Shown: in pieces, positions 41,521 to 50,396 of the stretch
Layout of the letters: each line of letters begins with the position of its first letter
Position numbering within the stretch: position 1 is the stretch's first letter
Assembly: GCF_004349065.1 (NCBI RefSeq)
Contig: NZ_SMKZ01000012.1
Location: 1-64,000 of the forward strand
DNA length: 64,000 bases
Direction of reading: 5' to 3'
Origin: Jiangella asiatica
GTDB lineage: Bacteria; Actinomycetota; Actinomycetes; Jiangellales; Jiangellaceae
The notes under the pieces: model-generated
What the model was told of the DNA's origin: nothing
What the model saw: only the letters and a program-made list of their open reading frames with translations
Databases searched by the model: none
Position numbers and translations under genes: made by a program

Positions 41521-43914
41521 TCAGGCGACGTCGACGGGGGCGACCCCGCTGATGCGATGCACCGCGAACGAGCGGACCTCGCCGCTGCGGTGGTCGAACG
41601 CGGACAGCCAGCCGCCCTCGAGCCGGGCAGGGTCGACCAGCCGCTCGGTGGTGGCGCCGTGGTGGTCGACGTAGCCGATCCAGACCGTGGTGCCGCTCTC
41701 CAGGGCACGACGCAGGTCGGCCAGCGTGGCGGCGGCGCCGGTACGGCCCAGCCGGCCGGGTGCGGCGTCGGGCGGACGCTCGGCGCGTGAGCGGTCGCCG
41801 GCCCGCAGCGCTCGGACCGCCGCCCCCAAAAGCGTCTCCTCCGGCACCGACGGCTCGGCGAACCCCGGCCGCGGCACGGTCCGGACCACCGCCCGGCGCG
41901 GCTCGGCGCGCCCGATGACGATGGAGCCGTCGGCCGCCTCCGGCACCGGGCTGAACCCGAGCTGCCGCAGCCGCTCGACCAGCGTGTTGGCCGGCAGCGA
42001 GGACGCCAGCACGGTGGGTGCCAGCCGCCGCAGGCCCAGGCTGGACGCCCGCGGCTCGGCCATGATGGCGGCCAGCACGGCGTGGTCGTCGCAGCGGACG
42101 AACGACTGCGCGCTGCCCACCCGCAGCTGGCCGTGCGTGCGGGCGACATCGTCGACGAGGTACGTGAGCGGCTGCGGCACCGGCGTCCGGGAGATGGCGG
42201 CGAGGAACTCGTGCACGTCGGCCGCGGACCGCCCGGCGTCCAGGGCCCGGCGCAGCGACCCGGCGGTGAACCGGTGCACCGACGCGCCGCCGCGGCTCTC
42301 GACGTCGGAGATCAGGGTCAGCTCGCGCTCGAGGTCAGAGCGCAGCGGTCCGGGTGCGACGGCGGTGAGGTCGGCCTGGAGCAGCACGTGGTCCAGCGGT
42401 TGCGGCAGGCAGGCGCGGATGGCGTCGGCCGCGGCGCCGACGGCCTTGTCGTCGACCCGGCCGGCCAGCAGCGGGCGGACGAAGGAGGCCAGCGCGCCCA
42501 TGCCGGTGACGCCGACCTGTTCGGCCTCGCGCAGCGTCCAGCGGACGAGGTCGTCGCGGAACCGGCCGCCGCGCCGCGGTCGTCGCCACTGGACGGCACC
42601 GAGCACACCGACGAGGTCCGGCGCCGAGCCCGGGGGCAGATCGGCCAGTTCCTCCAGAGCCAGCCGCCGGTACTCCGGCGCGGCCGGGCGCTCGAGGTCG
42701 CGGCCCAGTGGCGCCACCGGACGATCGCGCTCGTCGCGGCTGCCGGCCACGCCCGCGACCCGGGTGGTGGTCAGCCAAGCCCGCGCCAGGACGGCCCAGC
42801 GCCGCGCCGGCTCCTCGCGCCGCCACGCGTCGAACTCCGGCGTCGGCAGCCACACCTCGTCGACGTCGTCGCTGGCAGCCAGCAGACCGGCGGCGAGCGC
42901 GATCTCGGCGATCAGCGCCCCGCCGGCCTCGTCGGTGTCGAGCAGCTCCGGCAGGCGGCGCAGGTCGCGTACGCCCAGCCCGCCGGTGCGCAGCACCGCC
43001 GGCGGCTCGGCCGACCAGGTGTCGAGCAGCAGTTCGACCTTGCGGACCAGGTCGAACGCGCCCGCGCCGGCGGTCCGGTCGACGGTGTCGGGATTGCGCT
43101 CGGTGACCGGCGGCCGCGGCGGCGCCGTGAGGACGTCGGTGTGTACGCCGCCACGCAGGTGCAGCGCGATCTCGCGGGGCAGCACGACCGTGGCGGAGTC
43201 GACCGGCACCAGCAGGCCCAGCGCGAGCAGCTGGTCGATCGGCGTCCGCGCGGACTCTCTGTCGACGTCGCGCAGGGCGTCGTCGATGCGGCCGGTGGGC
43301 GGCCCCGGCGTCAGCGCCGCGAGGGCGGAGCGGGCGTCGTCGGTCAACTGGTCGAGCAGTGCGCTGAGGGTGGTGGGATCGCTCAGGTAGGTGGCGAGCG
43401 CTTCGGCGGCGGCGCCGTGGTCGCCGTTCGACGACAACCCGAGCACACGCATGATGGTGGTCAGCCGGCTCGGCGACAGCGCCAGCAGCGCCTGCCGCGC
43501 CGGCGGTCCCAACCCGGCCGGATGCGGGCCCAGGATCTCGCGCACGATGTGCGGCACCCGAATGTCGTCGTCGGGCCCCCACGCCAGGGCCTGCGCGCGC
43601 AGCGTGCCCAGGGAGACGTCGACGGAGCCCGCCTCGGGCCCGGCCAGCGGCAGCGCCGCGCGCACGCCGTCCACCCCCACCGGCGACGGCAGCACGACGA
43701 GGGCGTCGAGAACCTGCAGTGTGAAACGGTCGAGACGATCGAGCGCCCGCACCGCCGAGGCGCGCGTGGTCGCGCGCGCCGCCAGCTGGCTGACGTCGAC
43801 CGGGACCGGGACAAGCAGGTCGGGCCGGGCGCGCAGCAGCGCGGCCAGCTCGTCGTCTGCCCGGGCACGCAGATCCTCCGCGAGGCTGCGCGCGGGCGTG
43901 TCGTTCCCGGTCAC
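41521..43914 (-). CDS. Helicase-associated / WYL-type large DNA-associated protein
   Basis: The 797-residue protein resembles the actinobacterial family annotated as helicase conserved C-terminal-domain protein. It has an N-terminal winged-helix region (RATTRASAVRALDRLDRFTL), XPB-N-like segments, and the block HVLLQADLTAVAPGPLRSDL, typical of the domain shared with XPB helicases. A C-terminal WYL-like strand set follows (WIGYVDHHGATTERLVDPAR, FAVHRISGVAP). No Walker A or DEAD motif is visible, so it is not an active helicase by itself. In actinomycetes it usually lies near an XPB-type helicase gene; none is present here. Confidence 0.78.
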   Translation of the reverse strand: MTGNDTPARSLAEDLRARADDELAALLRARPDLLVPVPVDVSQLAARATTRASAVRALDRLDRFTLQVLDALVVLPSPVGVDGVRAALPLAGPEAGSVDVSLGTLRAQALAWGPDDDIRVPHIVREILGPHPAGLGPPARQALLALSPSRLTTIMRVLGLSSNGDHGAAAEALATYLSDPTTLSALLDQLTDDARSALAALTPGPPTGRIDDALRDVDRESARTPIDQLLALGLLVPVDSATVVLPREIALHLRGGVHTDVLTAPPRPPVTERNPDTVDRTAGAGAFDLVRKVELLLDTWSAEPPAVLRTGGLGVRDLRRLPELLDTDEAGGALIAEIALAAGLLAASDDVDEVWLPTPEFDAWRREEPARRWAVLARAWLTTTRVAGVAGSRDERDRPVAPLGRDLERPAAPEYRRLALEELADLPPGSAPDLVGVLGAVQWRRPRRGGRFRDDLVRWTLREAEQVGVTGMGALASFVRPLLAGRVDDKAVGAAADAIRACLPQPLDHVLLQADLTAVAPGPLRSDLERELTLISDVESRGGASVHRFTAGSLRRALDAGRSAADVHEFLAAISRTPVPQPLTYLVDDVARTHGQLRVGSAQSFVRCDDHAVLAAIMAEPRASSLGLRRLAPTVLASSLPANTLVERLRQLGFSPVPEAADGSIVIGRAEPRRAVVRTVPRPGFAEPSVPEETLLGAAVRALRAGDRSRAERPPDAAPGRLGRTGAAATLADLRRALESGTTVWIGYVDHHGATTERLVDPARLEGGWLSAFDHRSGEVRSFAVHRISGVAPVDVA

Positions 43915-46039: not shown

Positions 46040-46470
46040 GCGGAGCGGGCGCGGCGATCCCGTGCCCGCCGTACGGCTCGATGATCGTCGTGTCCCGGGC
46101 ATAGACGAGACCGTCAGGCTCGGAGTCCGGGGTCACCGCGCCGAAACCATCGTCGAATCGCGCCGGCCAATGCGTCGGCCAGCTCAGCAGCGTCCCGGTC
46201 GCCCACGTGCAGGACCCGCAGTCTCGGCAGCGGGCTGGTCACACGATCGGGACGCTCCAGGCCGGCCGCGGCGAAGGACGACAGCACCACGTCGAGGTCG
46301 GCGGCGCGGCACAGCAGCTCGCCGTGCTTGTCATGGACTCGACCCAGTCGCCGGCGCCTCGGATCGAACCTCTCCGGCCCGTCCCGGGCTCGGTCCTGAC
46401 GGCGATCGGTTCGGACGGCTGCGTGATGGGAGCTCCAGACGGTCCGGGGGCCAGTACGTACCGCAAGCAC
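46040..46470 (-). pseudogene. Decayed S8 protease paralogue (prodomain and His-box fragments)
   Basis: Two leftward fragments in different frames match the neighbouring S8 protease. DKHGELLCRAADLDVVLSSF (about 46250-46330) parallels YRQGQLICDERDLDDVLAAF. GLVYARDTTIIEPYGGHGIA (about 46050-46115) parallels DVFVPGTDQIRPYGGHGTA around the catalytic His. The segment with the catalytic Asp, and everything after the His box including Ser, is missing. It is a broken tandem copy with an internal deletion and frame change. Confidence 0.7.
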
Positions 46471-46517: not shown

Positions 46518-47741
46518 TCAGATGATCAACCGCGGGCCGGTCTGCGGCAGCGCCCCGATGGCTGCTTCCTGCAGCACGATGTGTCGTGCCACCGGTGCGT
46601 CGACGCCGCGCTCGACCATCCGGCGGGCGATCAGGCCGGCGACCACCGGGGTGGCGAACGACGTGCCGGACCAGATGGCGTGTCCGTTCGTGAACCGCGT
46701 CGACGTCTTGTCGACATAGGTGTAGCTGCCGTTCGGGAACGGGACCACGGTGCTCTCGCCCGACGTGTAGGTGTCGACCCAGTATCCGAAGTTCGACCAC
46801 GACGTGCGGGAGTCGCCATTGCGCGTCAGCGAGCCGACGGCGGTCGTCCAGCTATAGGCCGCCGGCCAGAACGGCACGTCGGTACCGTGGTTGCCGGCCG
46901 CGGCGACGATCACGGTCTTCGGGTGCCGGCTCAGGACGCGGCGGTAGAACATGTCGAACGCCTTGGGCGTGTTGCCGGGGCGGGCATAGAGGCCGGCCTG
47001 GACGCTGATGACCTCGACGCCGGCATGCACGACCTTCTCCAGGTCCTCGACGATGGCCAGCTCGTCGACGGCACCGCCGATCAGGCAGTCGCGCACCTCG
47101 ACACTCACCGACTGGGCACCGGAGACCGCGAGCAGCCGGGCGGTCGCCGCCGTGCCGTGGCCGCCGTAGGGGCGGATCTGGTCGGTGCCCGGTACGAACA
47201 CGTCGTCGTCGACCTCGTACTTCTTCACCGCGGCGAAGCGTTCGAAGCCGGAGTCCTTCGCCACCTCGGGGAGGAAGCCAGTGTCGACGACGGCGACGCG
47301 CGCTTCGCCCTGTCCGACGGGTTCACCGAGCTCCGGGATCGGCCCGTAGAGCGGAATGGGCTCGGTGGCCGGACACATGGCCATATGGCCCTGCGCATCC
47401 AGCACATGGTTGGGAGCGACGATCCGCTCGTCACCCAGCTCTCCGGCCAGCTTCGCGGCTACCTCGTAGGCGTCGGTGCCGGGGAGGTGTATGACGACCA
47501 GGCCCACGGGTCCCTCCGAGACCTCGGGCCGGTCGAGCCGCAGCTTGTCGAAGGCGGCGAGGACGTCGTCGAGGTCGCGCTCGTCGCAGATCAACTGGCC
47601 CTGCCGGTACAGAAACTCGATCTCGGTCTCGTCGCGGTTCCACCTGGCGGCGAGTTCGAACCCCCGATTCTTCGTGCGACGGGCGCTGTTGTCGCGCAGC
47701 CGGTCGAACTCCTCGTGAAGCCTGTCACGATCGCGTTCCAT
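46518..47741 (-). CDS. Cytoplasmic S8 (subtilisin-like) protease, partner of TPR-CHAT protein
   Basis: The 407-residue protein has no signal peptide. An N-terminal domain of about 145 residues (MERDRDRLHEEFDRLRD, IEFLYRQGQLICDERDLDDV) precedes the S8 domain with Asp153 (ARVAVVDTGF), His195 (PYGGHGTAATA), oxyanion Asn in AAAGNHG and Ser361 (SGTSFATPVVAG). ATG 47741 was chosen because AGGGGG lies 5-10 nt upstream; ATG 47756 is the alternative. It is divergent, with about 50 nt between the starts, from a TPR-CHAT protease. The intracellular location and pairing suggest regulated proteolysis of an internal substrate, not nutrition. Confidence 0.85.
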   Translation of the reverse strand: MERDRDRLHEEFDRLRDNSARRTKNRGFELAARWNRDETEIEFLYRQGQLICDERDLDDVLAAFDKLRLDRPEVSEGPVGLVVIHLPGTDAYEVAAKLAGELGDERIVAPNHVLDAQGHMAMCPATEPIPLYGPIPELGEPVGQGEARVAVVDTGFLPEVAKDSGFERFAAVKKYEVDDDVFVPGTDQIRPYGGHGTAATARLLAVSGAQSVSVEVRDCLIGGAVDELAIVEDLEKVVHAGVEVISVQAGLYARPGNTPKAFDMFYRRVLSRHPKTVIVAAAGNHGTDVPFWPAAYSWTTAVGSLTRNGDSRTSWSNFGYWVDTYTSGESTVVPFPNGSYTYVDKTSTRFTNGHAIWSGTSFATPVVAGLIARRMVERGVDAPVARHIVLQEAAIGALPQTGPRLII

Positions 47742-47792
47742 GATTCCCCCTGTCATGATCCTGGCAAATGGCTACATGTTTAGCATCGGCAC

Positions 47793-50396
47793 GTGGGCAT
47801 CGGAAGTACGGCGAACATATCGGCCGCGGCCGATTTGCCCACGTTGGCCATGTCGAGCCCCGCCGAGGCGGTTCGCCGGGCCGAGCGTGTGCTCGCAGAC
47901 GGCGCGGATGTCGTCGACCGGACGTACGCCCTCCAGGCCATCGCGATCGTGGAACGCGAACGCGGCGAGCTGCGGCGTGCCATTCGGACCATTCGTCGGG
48001 CAGTCGCTCTCTGCCGGAGCCACGGTCTCGATGAGCGGGCGTCAGACCTCGAAGCAAGTTTGGGCACGATCCTGGCCCTTGCGGGCCGGCGCCGTCCGGC
48101 CATGGCGTCCTTCGAGAATGCGCTGAGCACGGCGGACGACCTCGATCGGGCTCGCATCCTCGTTCGACGCGCCGCCGCTCACTTCTTCTTCGGCGGTCTC
48201 GAGGAGGCCAAGAAGGACAGCCGCGACGCCGTGTCCATCCTCGCCAGGCGCGGCGACTCCGTATGGGAGGCTCGCGCCCGCATCAACCTCGGCTACACGC
48301 TCTCCGGGCTGGGCGAGTACCGCGAGGCCGACGAGGCGCTGGCAGCGGCGCAGGGCCTCGCCGAGGCTGGCGGACAGGACTACCTCGCGACGATCGTCGT
48401 CCACAACCGTGGCGACTGCGCACATCGCCTGGGCGACTTGCCACGTGCCTTGCGACTGCTCTACGACGCACGGCGGAGGTATGAGGAGCTCGGCGTGGTG
48501 CCGCCGGAGGTGGTGCGGGACCTGGCCGTCGTGCAGTTGGCGGCCGGGTTGACCGAGGATGCGGCCCGGACGGCCGACGAGATGGTGGCGCGGCTGGAGA
48601 GCACCCGCGACGCCGCCTTGCGGAGGGCCGACGGGTTCATCGCCGCGGCCATCGTGCACCTGGCCGCGGGCAACCACGAGCGCGCCATCGACCTGGCCCG
48701 CAAGGCAGCGCGATCCAGCGCCCGGCAGGGCCACCGCGACGCCGCGCGGCACGCGCGCGTCGTCGTCCTCCGGGCGCAGGCCGCGACCGGCCACGTCACC
48801 AAGCGGCATGCCCGCTCCGCCGCCGCGCTGGCGGCGGAGCTGACCGACCGGTACTCGTCGGAGCGGCTGGACGCGCTGGTACTGGCCGGGCGGATGGCAC
48901 GCTCCGCGGGCCTGCCGGAGCTGGCCGCGGAGAACCTGCGGGTGGCGGCCGCTGCCCGGCACCGCGGCTCGGCGCTGCGCCGGGCGTCGGCCTGGTACGC
49001 ACAGGCGCTGCTGGCCGAGCAGCGCGGCGACCGGCGCGGCATGCTGCACGCGTGCGCCCGCGGGCTGGACGTCCTCGATGCGCACGCGGTGTCGTTGGGC
49101 GCCACTGAGCTGCGCGCCCGTGCGACCGTCCACGGCACCGACCTGGCGATCCTGGCGACCCGGCGGGTGGCGGTCGACGGGTCCGCGCGTGAGCTGCTGC
49201 GGTGGACCGAGCGGTGGCGCGGCAGCCTGCACTCGCTGCCCTGGCCCGATGCCCGCTCCGACGGGGAGCTCGCGGCCGAGCTGGGCCGGCTGCGCTCGGT
49301 GGACAGTGTGCTCGGCACGGGCGGCGACACCGAGGCCGAGCGACGCCGGGTGGAGGAGCGCATCCGCCGGCACGTGCACGGCCGCGCCGGCGACAGCACC
49401 GGCCGCCGGCGCCGGTTCGACGTCGGCGACCTGCTCGACGCGTTGGGTGACCGGACGCTGGTGAGCATCGTCGGCCTCAAGGAGGAGCGGTTCCACATCG
49501 TCGTGGCCAGGCACGGCCGGTTGCGGCACCTCGTGGCGGGCGAGGTCGCCGGCGCGCTGGAGGAGGTCGAGTACGCCCGGTTCGCGTTGCGCGGCGCCGC
49601 GCTGGCAGGCGACGCCGTCGCCGGTGCCATGCTGGCCGCGGCCGAGCCGGGGCTGGCCAGGCTGCAGGAGACCATGCTCGGCCCGGTGGCCGCCGAGCTG
49701 GGTGACGGGCCGGTGGTGCTGGTGCCGCCGTCGACCATGCAGGCGATCCCGTGGGGCGCGCTGCCGGCGTTGCGGGAGCGGGACGTCACCGTGGCGCCGT
49801 CGGCGGCGGCGTGGCTGCGGGCACGCACCAGCAACCCGCCCGGACGGCGACGGGTCGCGCTGATAGCCGGCGCCGACCTCGCGTCGTCGGGCGCCGAGGT
49901 CGGGGTGCTTGCGGGCGTGTACCCGGACGCGACGGTGCTGTCCGGCGACGCCGCCACCGCCGAGGCCGCGCTGGCCGCTCTGGACGGCGCCTGGCTCGCG
50001 CACGTCGGTGCGCACGGCCGGTACCGCGGCGACAACCCGATGTTCTCGGCGTTGGAGTTGGCCGACGGGCCACTCACCGTCTTCGACCTGGAGCGGCTGG
50101 CCGCGCCGCCGTACCGGCTGCTGCTGACCGCGTGCGAGTCCGGCGTCGGCTCGCCGACCGGCGCGGACGAGCTGCTGGGCCTGACGACGTCGCTGTCGGC
50201 CCTGGGCACCGCGGGTCTGCTGGCCAGCGTCGTCCCGGTCAGCGATGCCGGCAGCGTCGACCTCAGCCTCACCGTGCACGAGCGGCTGCGCGCCGGCCAC
50301 GACCTCAGCACCGCGCTGCTCGCGGCGCGTCGGGCCGCCGCGGACCCGCGAGGCCGGGCCACCGCGTGGGCATTCCTGGCTCTCGGCGCGGCGTGA
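47793..50396 (+). CDS. TPR-CHAT caspase-like protease
   Basis: The 867-residue protein has an N-terminal array of TPR-like helical repeats (about 20-480; e.g. RARINLGYTLSGLGEYREAD, VVHNRGDCAHRLGDLPRAL) and a C-terminal CHAT domain (about 560-867). The probable catalytic dyad is His741 in LAHVGAHGRYRG and Cys781 in LLLTACESGVGSP, followed by GLTTSLSALGTAGLLASVVPVSD, typical of CHAT. GTG 47793 is 7 nt after TAGCAT (47781-47786) and has no RBS, so the mRNA is probably leaderless. CHAT proteases are caspase relatives used in bacterial conflict and cell-death pathways. The divergent S8 gene suggests a two-protease system. Confidence 0.87.
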   Translation: MGIGSTANISAAADLPTLAMSSPAEAVRRAERVLADGADVVDRTYALQAIAIVERERGELRRAIRTIRRAVALCRSHGLDERASDLEASLGTILALAGRRRPAMASFENALSTADDLDRARILVRRAAAHFFFGGLEEAKKDSRDAVSILARRGDSVWEARARINLGYTLSGLGEYREADEALAAAQGLAEAGGQDYLATIVVHNRGDCAHRLGDLPRALRLLYDARRRYEELGVVPPEVVRDLAVVQLAAGLTEDAARTADEMVARLESTRDAALRRADGFIAAAIVHLAAGNHERAIDLARKAARSSARQGHRDAARHARVVVLRAQAATGHVTKRHARSAAALAAELTDRYSSERLDALVLAGRMARSAGLPELAAENLRVAAAARHRGSALRRASAWYAQALLAEQRGDRRGMLHACARGLDVLDAHAVSLGATELRARATVHGTDLAILATRRVAVDGSARELLRWTERWRGSLHSLPWPDARSDGELAAELGRLRSVDSVLGTGGDTEAERRRVEERIRRHVHGRAGDSTGRRRRFDVGDLLDALGDRTLVSIVGLKEERFHIVVARHGRLRHLVAGEVAGALEEVEYARFALRGAALAGDAVAGAMLAAAEPGLARLQETMLGPVAAELGDGPVVLVPPSTMQAIPWGALPALRERDVTVAPSAAAWLRARTSNPPGRRRVALIAGADLASSGAEVGVLAGVYPDATVLSGDAATAEAALAALDGAWLAHVGAHGRYRGDNPMFSALELADGPLTVFDLERLAAPPYRLLLTACESGVGSPTGADELLGLTTSLSALGTAGLLASVVPVSDAGSVDLSLTVHERLRAGHDLSTALLAARRAAADPRGRATAWAFLALGAA

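What the first reader, a model, noticed from the sequence alone, without database searches (positions are those of the whole stretch)
46518..50396. Divergent cytoplasmic S8 protease and TPR-CHAT caspase-like protease: candidate two-protease signalling or defence module
Seen: an S8 protease without signal peptide (Asp153, His195, Ser361) with an uncharacterised 145-residue N-terminal domain, and a TPR-CHAT protein with His741/Cys781, starts about 50 nt apart. Known: CHAT proteases with TPRs act in conflict and cell-death pathways (e.g. TPR-CHAT with gRAMP, and gasdermin-linked proteases). Inference: one protease activates the other or they share an intracellular substrate. No gasdermin-like or effector gene is visible beside them.
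Basis: partly seen in the sequence, partly recalled or inferred. Interest (0 to 1): 0.82.

Follow-up and report, generated by a model that had tools for sequence, protein, structure and literature searches.

The report
Protease half of a sigma-factor switch
Two protein-cutting enzymes, a subtilisin-like and a caspase-like one, sit back to back in this soil bacterium; across actinobacteria they almost always come with one type of sigma factor (ECF54, a gene switch) and a small partner protein, so they most likely form a signalling pathway that turns genes on by cutting a protein, rather than an isolated toxin or defence pair.

Summary
In detail: a catalytically intact S8 protease (46518-47741, -) and a TPR-CHAT protease (47793-50396, +), starts 51 nt apart, in a Jiangella genome. 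The S8 'uncharacterised N-domain' is a subtilisin-type prodomain plus an N-terminal helix (AlphaFold model matches unprocessed pro-subtilisin, Z 29.9). All 80 loci found with the CHAT protein alone carry this S8 divergently beside it. In other actinobacterial lineages the pair also adjoins an ECF sigma factor and a ~150-residue helix+Ig-like protein ('f3'). That gene set matches the published description of group ECF54 (subtilase, CHAT, carboxypeptidase-type neighbours; PMC8999054), never tested experimentally as far as I found. In Jiangellaceae the set is split: sigma+f3 lie elsewhere in the genome, yet all parts still co-occur (f3 with CHAT in 396 Actinomycetota genomes, p = 2e-35). A promoter-like motif GTATCA-N16-CTCT precedes the S8 operon in linked genomes and ECF54 in split ones. 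Best reading: proteolytic control of a sigma factor, like type III-E CRISPR Csx29, which cuts the sigma inhibitor Csx30. Inferred, not shown: f3 as inhibitor, which protease cuts what, and the signal. No support for defence: chromosomal, in all congeners sampled, no PADLOC system.

The parts
46518..47741 (-). Cytoplasmic S8 (subtilisin-family) protease, 407 aa, catalytic D153, H195, N284, S361
   Evidence: Pfam PF00082 4e-16; triad invariant in 45 relatives; AF2 model pLDDT 92
47397..47621 (-). Residues 41-115 of S8: subtilisin prodomain (beta-alpha-beta-beta-alpha-beta, I9-like fold); residues 2-22 form an extra N-terminal helix
   Evidence: AF2 secondary structure; alignment to unautoprocessed pro-subtilisin E, Z 29.9, model residues 47-407
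47358..47375 (-). Residues 123-128 (CPATEP): conserved motif in the linker between prodomain and catalytic domain; candidate processing/inhibitory segment
   Evidence: C123, P124, E127, P128 invariant or nearly so; residues 121-123 are the only stretch with pLDDT <50; role is inference
46521..47348 (-). Residues 132-407: mature-subtilisin-like catalytic domain
   Evidence: aligns to mature subtilisins from residue 132, Z about 28
47793..50396 (+). TPR-CHAT caspase-like protease, 867 aa; N-terminal TPRs, CHAT domain residues about 621-865 (49653-50387), H741 (50013-50015), C781 (50133-50135)
   Evidence: Pfam; catalytic pair invariant; profile matches Csx29/TPR-CHAT structures
47781..47786 (+). 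TAGCAT, -10-like element 6 nt before the CHAT GTG: leaderless start
   Evidence: sequence; TANNNT-N5..9-RTG in 80/87 S8-CHAT intergenic regions, 4 in shuffles
47745..47751 (-). Shine-Dalgarno (AGGGGGA on the - strand) of the S8 gene
   Evidence: sequence; conserved in the genus
46044..46371 (-). Decayed relic of a second, tandem S8 gene (intact in several congeners); residues ~33-90 and ~169-202 remain, catalytic Ser region lost
   Evidence: tblastn/blastn against the intact copies of G003, G001, G008; prodomain hit

Best explanation
The pair is the protease half of an ECF54-type sigma-factor pathway whose other half (ECF54 sigma gene followed by the small gene f3) has moved to another place in the Jiangella chromosome. 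Proposed working: f3 holds the sigma factor inactive (inferred from it always lying directly behind the sigma gene and from the Csx30 parallel). The TPR region of CHAT senses a cytoplasmic cue and activates the CHAT protease (inferred). S8 is kept inactive by its own prodomain until the prodomain/linker is cut, by CHAT or by itself (the prodomain fold is predicted; inhibition and the identity of the cutter are inferred). The proteases then cut f3 (one or both; inferred), freeing ECF54, which transcribes its own operon and a few other genes from GTATCA-N16-CTCT promoters (motif shown; recognition by ECF54 inferred).
For: Pair coupling: 80/80 CHAT-seeded loci; 92 divergent, 3 codirectional, 2 convergent pairs, so linkage survives rearrangement. 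Sigma and f3 adjacent to the pair in 84 of 100 loci examined and in further orders. f3 directly behind the ECF gene, same strand, in 85 of 86 cases. Split loci keep both halves: Jiangellaceae, G140, G215, G171. Phyletic co-occurrence of f3 and CHAT in 396 genomes: 33 both, 9 and 4 single, 350 neither; 21 genera both. Motif on the S8-directed strand in 64/87 intergenic regions, 0 on the CHAT-directed strand, shuffles mean 0.145; upstream of ECF54 in split genomes; the extended pattern GTATCW-N16-CTCTGTA has one site per Jiangella genome, 0 for the reversed control, upstream of ECF54. ECF54 proteolysis proposal: PMC8999054. TPR-CHAT cutting an ECF-sigma inhibitor is demonstrated for Csx29/Csx30 (PMC10028731).
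Against: No direct evidence that f3 binds sigma or is cut; f3 has no detectable similarity to solved proteins, so none to Csx30 or anti-sigma structures in that set. The review describes ECF54 as lacking an anti-sigma factor. In Jiangella the protease pair lacks the motif and is unlinked from sigma, so the link there rests on co-occurrence, and the 12 Jiangella genomes are not independent. The motif lies about 414-480 nt (about 700 in G003) before ECF54 in Jiangellaceae but about 50-65 nt before S8 or ECF54 in other lineages. ECF54 assignment is by gene context, not by comparison with the reference ECF54 sequences. Nine genomes have f3 without a strong CHAT hit. Two divergent relatives (L088, L264) have an S8 with a hydrophobic N-terminal segment, so not every version need be cytoplasmic.
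Confidence: 0.6

Rival explanations
1. Same pathway, different substrate: no f3 inhibition. CHAT and S8 act directly on the sigma factor (cutting an inhibitory part or degrading it), and f3 is a scaffold or adaptor.
For: The review proposes proteolytic control of ECF54 without an anti-sigma factor (PMC8999054); f3 has an Ig/FN3-like beta-sandwich, a fold often used for binding; no f3 hit to known anti-sigma proteins.
Against: ECF54 proteins have plain sigma2-sigma4 architecture of about 190-200 aa with no conserved extension to remove; the strict sigma-then-f3 gene order is typical of sigma/anti-sigma pairs.
Confidence: 0.25
2. The two proteases form a cell-death or anti-phage module, with self-cleavage cascades and an unlinked toxic effector.
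For: TPR-CHAT proteases act in type III-E CRISPR (PMC10028731); caspase-nuclease and nuclease-protease pairs defend against phage (PMC12799240).
Against: Present in 11/11 sampled congeners in a conserved chromosomal setting; no related CHAT in viral contigs and only two weak partial plasmid hits; no recognisable defence system in PADLOC; the conserved partners are a sigma factor and f3, not a nuclease or gasdermin.
Confidence: 0.07
3. In Jiangella the split pair no longer works with ECF54 and has been turned to another use; co-occurrence reflects shared ancestry.
For: Pair and sigma are unlinked and the pair lacks the motif in all Jiangellaceae.
Against: Splits occurred in several other lineages too (G140, G215, G171) with all parts kept; genera-level co-occurrence p = 9e-22; catalytic residues invariant.
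Confidence: 0.08

Closest known systems
ECF54 group of ECF sigma factors (PMC8999054, citing Huang 2015 and Casas-Pastor 2021)
   Same: Genetic context of subtilase + CHAT + carboxypeptidase(-regulatory)-type protein + ECF sigma factor in Actinobacteria; proteolytic control already proposed
   Different: In the window's family the sigma and the small protein are not beside the proteases; here I add the S8 prodomain, the strict sigma-f3 order, co-occurrence statistics and a candidate promoter motif. The two primary papers were not held, so I could not check whether they list the motif or f3.
Type III-E CRISPR Craspase/CASP: Csx29 (TPR-CHAT), Csx30, CASP-sigma (PMC10028731)
   Same: TPR-CHAT protease together with an ECF sigma factor and a soluble third protein; CHAT catalytic region aligns
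   Different: No Cas7-11/crRNA seen beside it, no Csx30 homology detected, and an additional S8 protease
Pro-subtilisin / Tk-subtilisin (S8A, I9 prodomain)
   Same: Prodomain + catalytic domain fold over 300 aligned residues (Z 29.9)
   Different: No signal peptide, an extra N-terminal helix, a conserved CPxxEP linker; not a secreted degradative enzyme
Canu caspase-nuclease and trypsin-nuclease defence pairs (PMC12799240)
   Same: Bacterial caspase-family protease activating a partner
   Different: Partner here is a sigma-factor set and an S8 protease; no nuclease

Membership tests
ECF54 sigma-factor module | ECF sigma factor (sigma2 + sigma4) | tested here: met
   TIGR02937 5e-19 to 2e-17, Sigma70_r2; Jiangella homologue G000:C85:43740-44279 E 1e-59 to the module's own profile
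ECF54 sigma-factor module | Subtilase, CHAT and carboxypeptidase-type proteins in the context | tested here: met
   Met in linked genomes; f3 of L083 matches CarboxypepD_reg weakly, below Pfam's cutoff; in Jiangella met only genome-wide, because the set is split
ECF54 sigma-factor module | Sequence clustering with reference ECF54 proteins (e.g. Geodermatophilus SFT86700.1) | not tested
   Reference sequences and primary papers not held
Craspase/CASP system | TPR-CHAT protease | tested here: met
   CHAT profile matches Csx29 chains 8d9f/7x8a at about 4e-5 with catalytic H and C aligned
Craspase/CASP system | Csx30-type sigma inhibitor | tested here: inconclusive
   f3 profile has no match to solved protein sequences up to E 1; functional analogy only
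Craspase/CASP system | Cas7-11/crRNA partner | not tested
   No Cas7-11 search was run; the conserved neighbours found by clustering and named by profile (sigma, f3, S8, LuxR-type regulator) are not Cas proteins
Subtilisin family S8 | D/H/S triad, oxyanion Asn, subtilase fold | tested here: met
Subtilisin family S8 | I9-type prodomain | tested here: met
   predicted beta-alpha-beta-beta-alpha-beta, aligned with pro-subtilisin E and Tk prodomains; no Pfam I9 hit, so assigned by fold only
Known anti-phage defence systems (PADLOC) | Match to a defence-system model | tested here: not met
   S8 only a weak generic subtilase hit, CHAT none; neighbours, sigma and f3 match no system, only generic domain models such as cold shock
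Anti-sigma factor (f3) | Binds and inhibits its sigma factor | not testable with these tools
   Only gene order (85/86 directly downstream of ECF) and fold available

The most novel reading that the evidence does not exclude
The ECF54 set is a CRISPR-free counterpart of the Craspase pathway: a TPR-CHAT caspase-like protease and a prodomain-bearing cytoplasmic subtilisin act in sequence to cut a soluble, previously unrecognised sigma inhibitor (f3), a wholly cytoplasmic two-protease sigma-activation cascade, from which the CRISPR version may have been drawn.
Probability: 0.4. Interest if true: 0.78.

Novelty: new variant of a known kind. Interest (0 to 1): 0.58.

Why it matters
Most regulated-proteolysis routes to ECF sigma factors start at the membrane. 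A widely conserved, soluble caspase + subtilisin pair tied to one sigma group would be a bacterial protease cascade acting on transcription, would give a non-CRISPR comparison for Csx29/Csx30, and makes testable predictions (f3 as substrate and inhibitor; GTATCA-N16-CTCT as the ECF54 promoter). It also shows that a gene pair that looks effector-less in one genome can be explained by comparing linked and split versions elsewhere.

Tried and rejected
Gasdermin/toxin/nuclease partner next to the pair: none found; Jiangella neighbours are an FAD monooxygenase, a TetR regulator, a HAD hydrolase, a cold-shock protein and an MFS transporter. Mobile or viral origin: none of the viral-contig candidates encodes a CHAT relative; plasmid hits for CHAT are two weak partial ones and for S8 generic subtilases. 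An ECF54-type promoter in the Jiangella S8-CHAT intergenic region: not found. An RNA family upstream of ECF54: no Rfam match. f3 as a Csx30 homologue or known anti-sigma: no sequence match; fold search gave only weak Ig/FN3-like hits. Genome-wide the strict motif is too rare and its reversed control too similar in count to list a regulon from it alone. Literature: no experimental study of an ECF54 system was found.
Full report
OBSERVATION. The S8 gene's conserved start is the ATG at 47741, which has a good Shine-Dalgarno and is the start kept in the genus; with it the quoted residues are exact. Catalytic residues of both proteases are invariant across relatives. The CHAT start (GTG, 47793) lies 6 nt after a TAGCAT element, i.e. 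a leaderless start, and this arrangement (TANNNT-N5..9-RTG) is seen in 80 of 87 divergent intergenic regions against 4 in shuffled ones.

THE S8 N-DOMAIN. An AlphaFold model from 45 relatives (pLDDT 92) gives a helix (2-22) followed by beta41-53, alpha54-66, beta73-76, beta81-85, alpha91-102, beta108-115 and then the subtilase domain. The best structural matches are unautoprocessed pro-subtilisin E (Z 29.9, rmsd 3.6, 303 residues, model 47-407) and pro-Tk-subtilisin; mature subtilisins align from residue 132. So the 'uncharacterised' domain is a prodomain. The linker carries a conserved CPxxEP motif. That it is a processing or blocking site is inference.

CO-OCCURRENCE. A collection scan seeded with CHAT only gave 80 loci (Jiangella, Phytoactinopolyspora, Kribbella, Streptomyces, Nonomuraea, Actinoplanes, Thermomonospora and others). 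All 80 have the S8 beside CHAT, in two cases (L110, L153) cut off by the contig end. Conversely the S8 prodomain profile hit 13 other genomes in a 396-genome phylum sample; the 11 clear hits all have CHAT adjacent, the two weakest do not. Pairs are mostly divergent (92) but also codirectional (3) or convergent (2), so it is not passive synteny.

THE MISSING PARTNERS. Neighbour clustering over 46 representative loci showed two further recurring families: an ECF sigma factor and a ~150-residue protein, f3. They adjoin the pair in 84 of 100 loci; the exceptions are Jiangellaceae, truncated contigs and a few distant loci. f3 directly follows the sigma gene in 85 of 86 cases. In the window's genome sigma and f3 are at G000:C85:43740-44279 and 43246-43695, and likewise apart in the Jiangellaceae genomes that carry the set. 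Other lineages split independently (G140, G215, G171). In the 396-genome sample f3 and CHAT coincide in 33 genomes, are single in 9 and 4, absent in 350 (p 1.7e-35; genera 21/6/3/207, p 9.5e-22). Genomes are related, so these p-values overstate independence, but repeated splits argue the same way.

KNOWN OR NOT. A review states that group ECF54 is proposed to be controlled by proteolysis because carboxypeptidase, subtilase and CHAT proteins lie in its context (PMC8999054). This matches the set found here, including the weak carboxypeptidase-regulatory match of f3. The primary papers were not held, and no experimental work was found.

PROMOTER MOTIF. A dyad GTATCA-N16-CTCT was noticed in S8-CHAT intergenic regions: 64/87 on the strand towards S8, none towards CHAT, shuffles mean 0.145 (that count allowed spacers of 14-18, and the motif was chosen after looking at these regions, so it is not an independent test). 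The independent test is its position elsewhere: upstream of ECF54 in split genomes (exact in L240, L241, L244, L245, L257, L266; one mismatch in L238, L239, L242, L243, L253), in front of ECF54 in Kribbella and of f3 in L079, and in front of a LuxR-type ATPase regulator gene beside CHAT in Streptomyces and Thermomonospora. The extended form GTATCW-N16-CTCTGTA occurs exactly once in each of 12 Jiangella genomes, never reversed; in the window's genome the site is on another contig end (C113:21584) that is homologous to the region just before ECF54 in congeners. I infer ECF54 autoregulation.

MECHANISM. Shown: intact proteases, prodomain fold (predicted), co-occurrence, sigma-f3 order, motif. Inferred: TPR sensing, prodomain inhibition and its removal, f3 as inhibitor and substrate. 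The nearest demonstrated precedent is Csx29 (TPR-CHAT) cutting Csx30, an inhibitor of an ECF sigma factor (PMC10028731); the CHAT domains align including the catalytic residues, but f3 shows no sequence relation to solved proteins. The f3 model (pLDDT 84) has two N-terminal helices, a low-confidence loop near 61-70 and an Ig/FN3-like sandwich; the loop is a candidate cut site.

VERDICT.

Noticed in passing
window 46044-46371 (-): Relic of a second tandem S8 gene; intact copies (about 407-413 aa, triad present) follow the first S8 in several congeners (G001, G003, G007, G008), interrupted or partial in G005 and G011.
   Followed up: yes
L107, L135, L156, L100: gene beside CHAT (e.g. L135:10697-12508): A LuxR/GerE-type ATPase (AAA_16) regulator next to CHAT has the same GTATCA-N16-CTCT motif right before its start; likely another member of the ECF54 regulon.
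   Followed up: partly
L083:8798 (+) and 16321 (+): Two further motif copies close to the module, in front of or at the start of response-regulator-like genes.
   Followed up: partly
region before ECF54 in Jiangellaceae (L238-L244; window genome contigs C113/C85): Conserved long inverted repeat (GTGACGGG..CGTG / CACG..CCCGTCAC) between the motif and ECF54, with no Rfam match; in the window's genome G-rich repeats there coincide with a contig break.
   Followed up: partly
L088:11375-12631 and L264: Divergent versions in which the S8 beside CHAT and ECF has a hydrophobic, signal-peptide-like N-terminus.
   Followed up: partly
L149, L261, L265: Duplicated sets (e.g. S8-ECF-f3 twice in Nonomuraea; two S8-CHAT-f3 groups in G151 and G405).
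   Followed up: no
L237:14615-15748: A DUF3071 protein gene (probably SepH, from memory) lies upstream of the split ECF54-f3 operon in Jiangellaceae.
   Followed up: no
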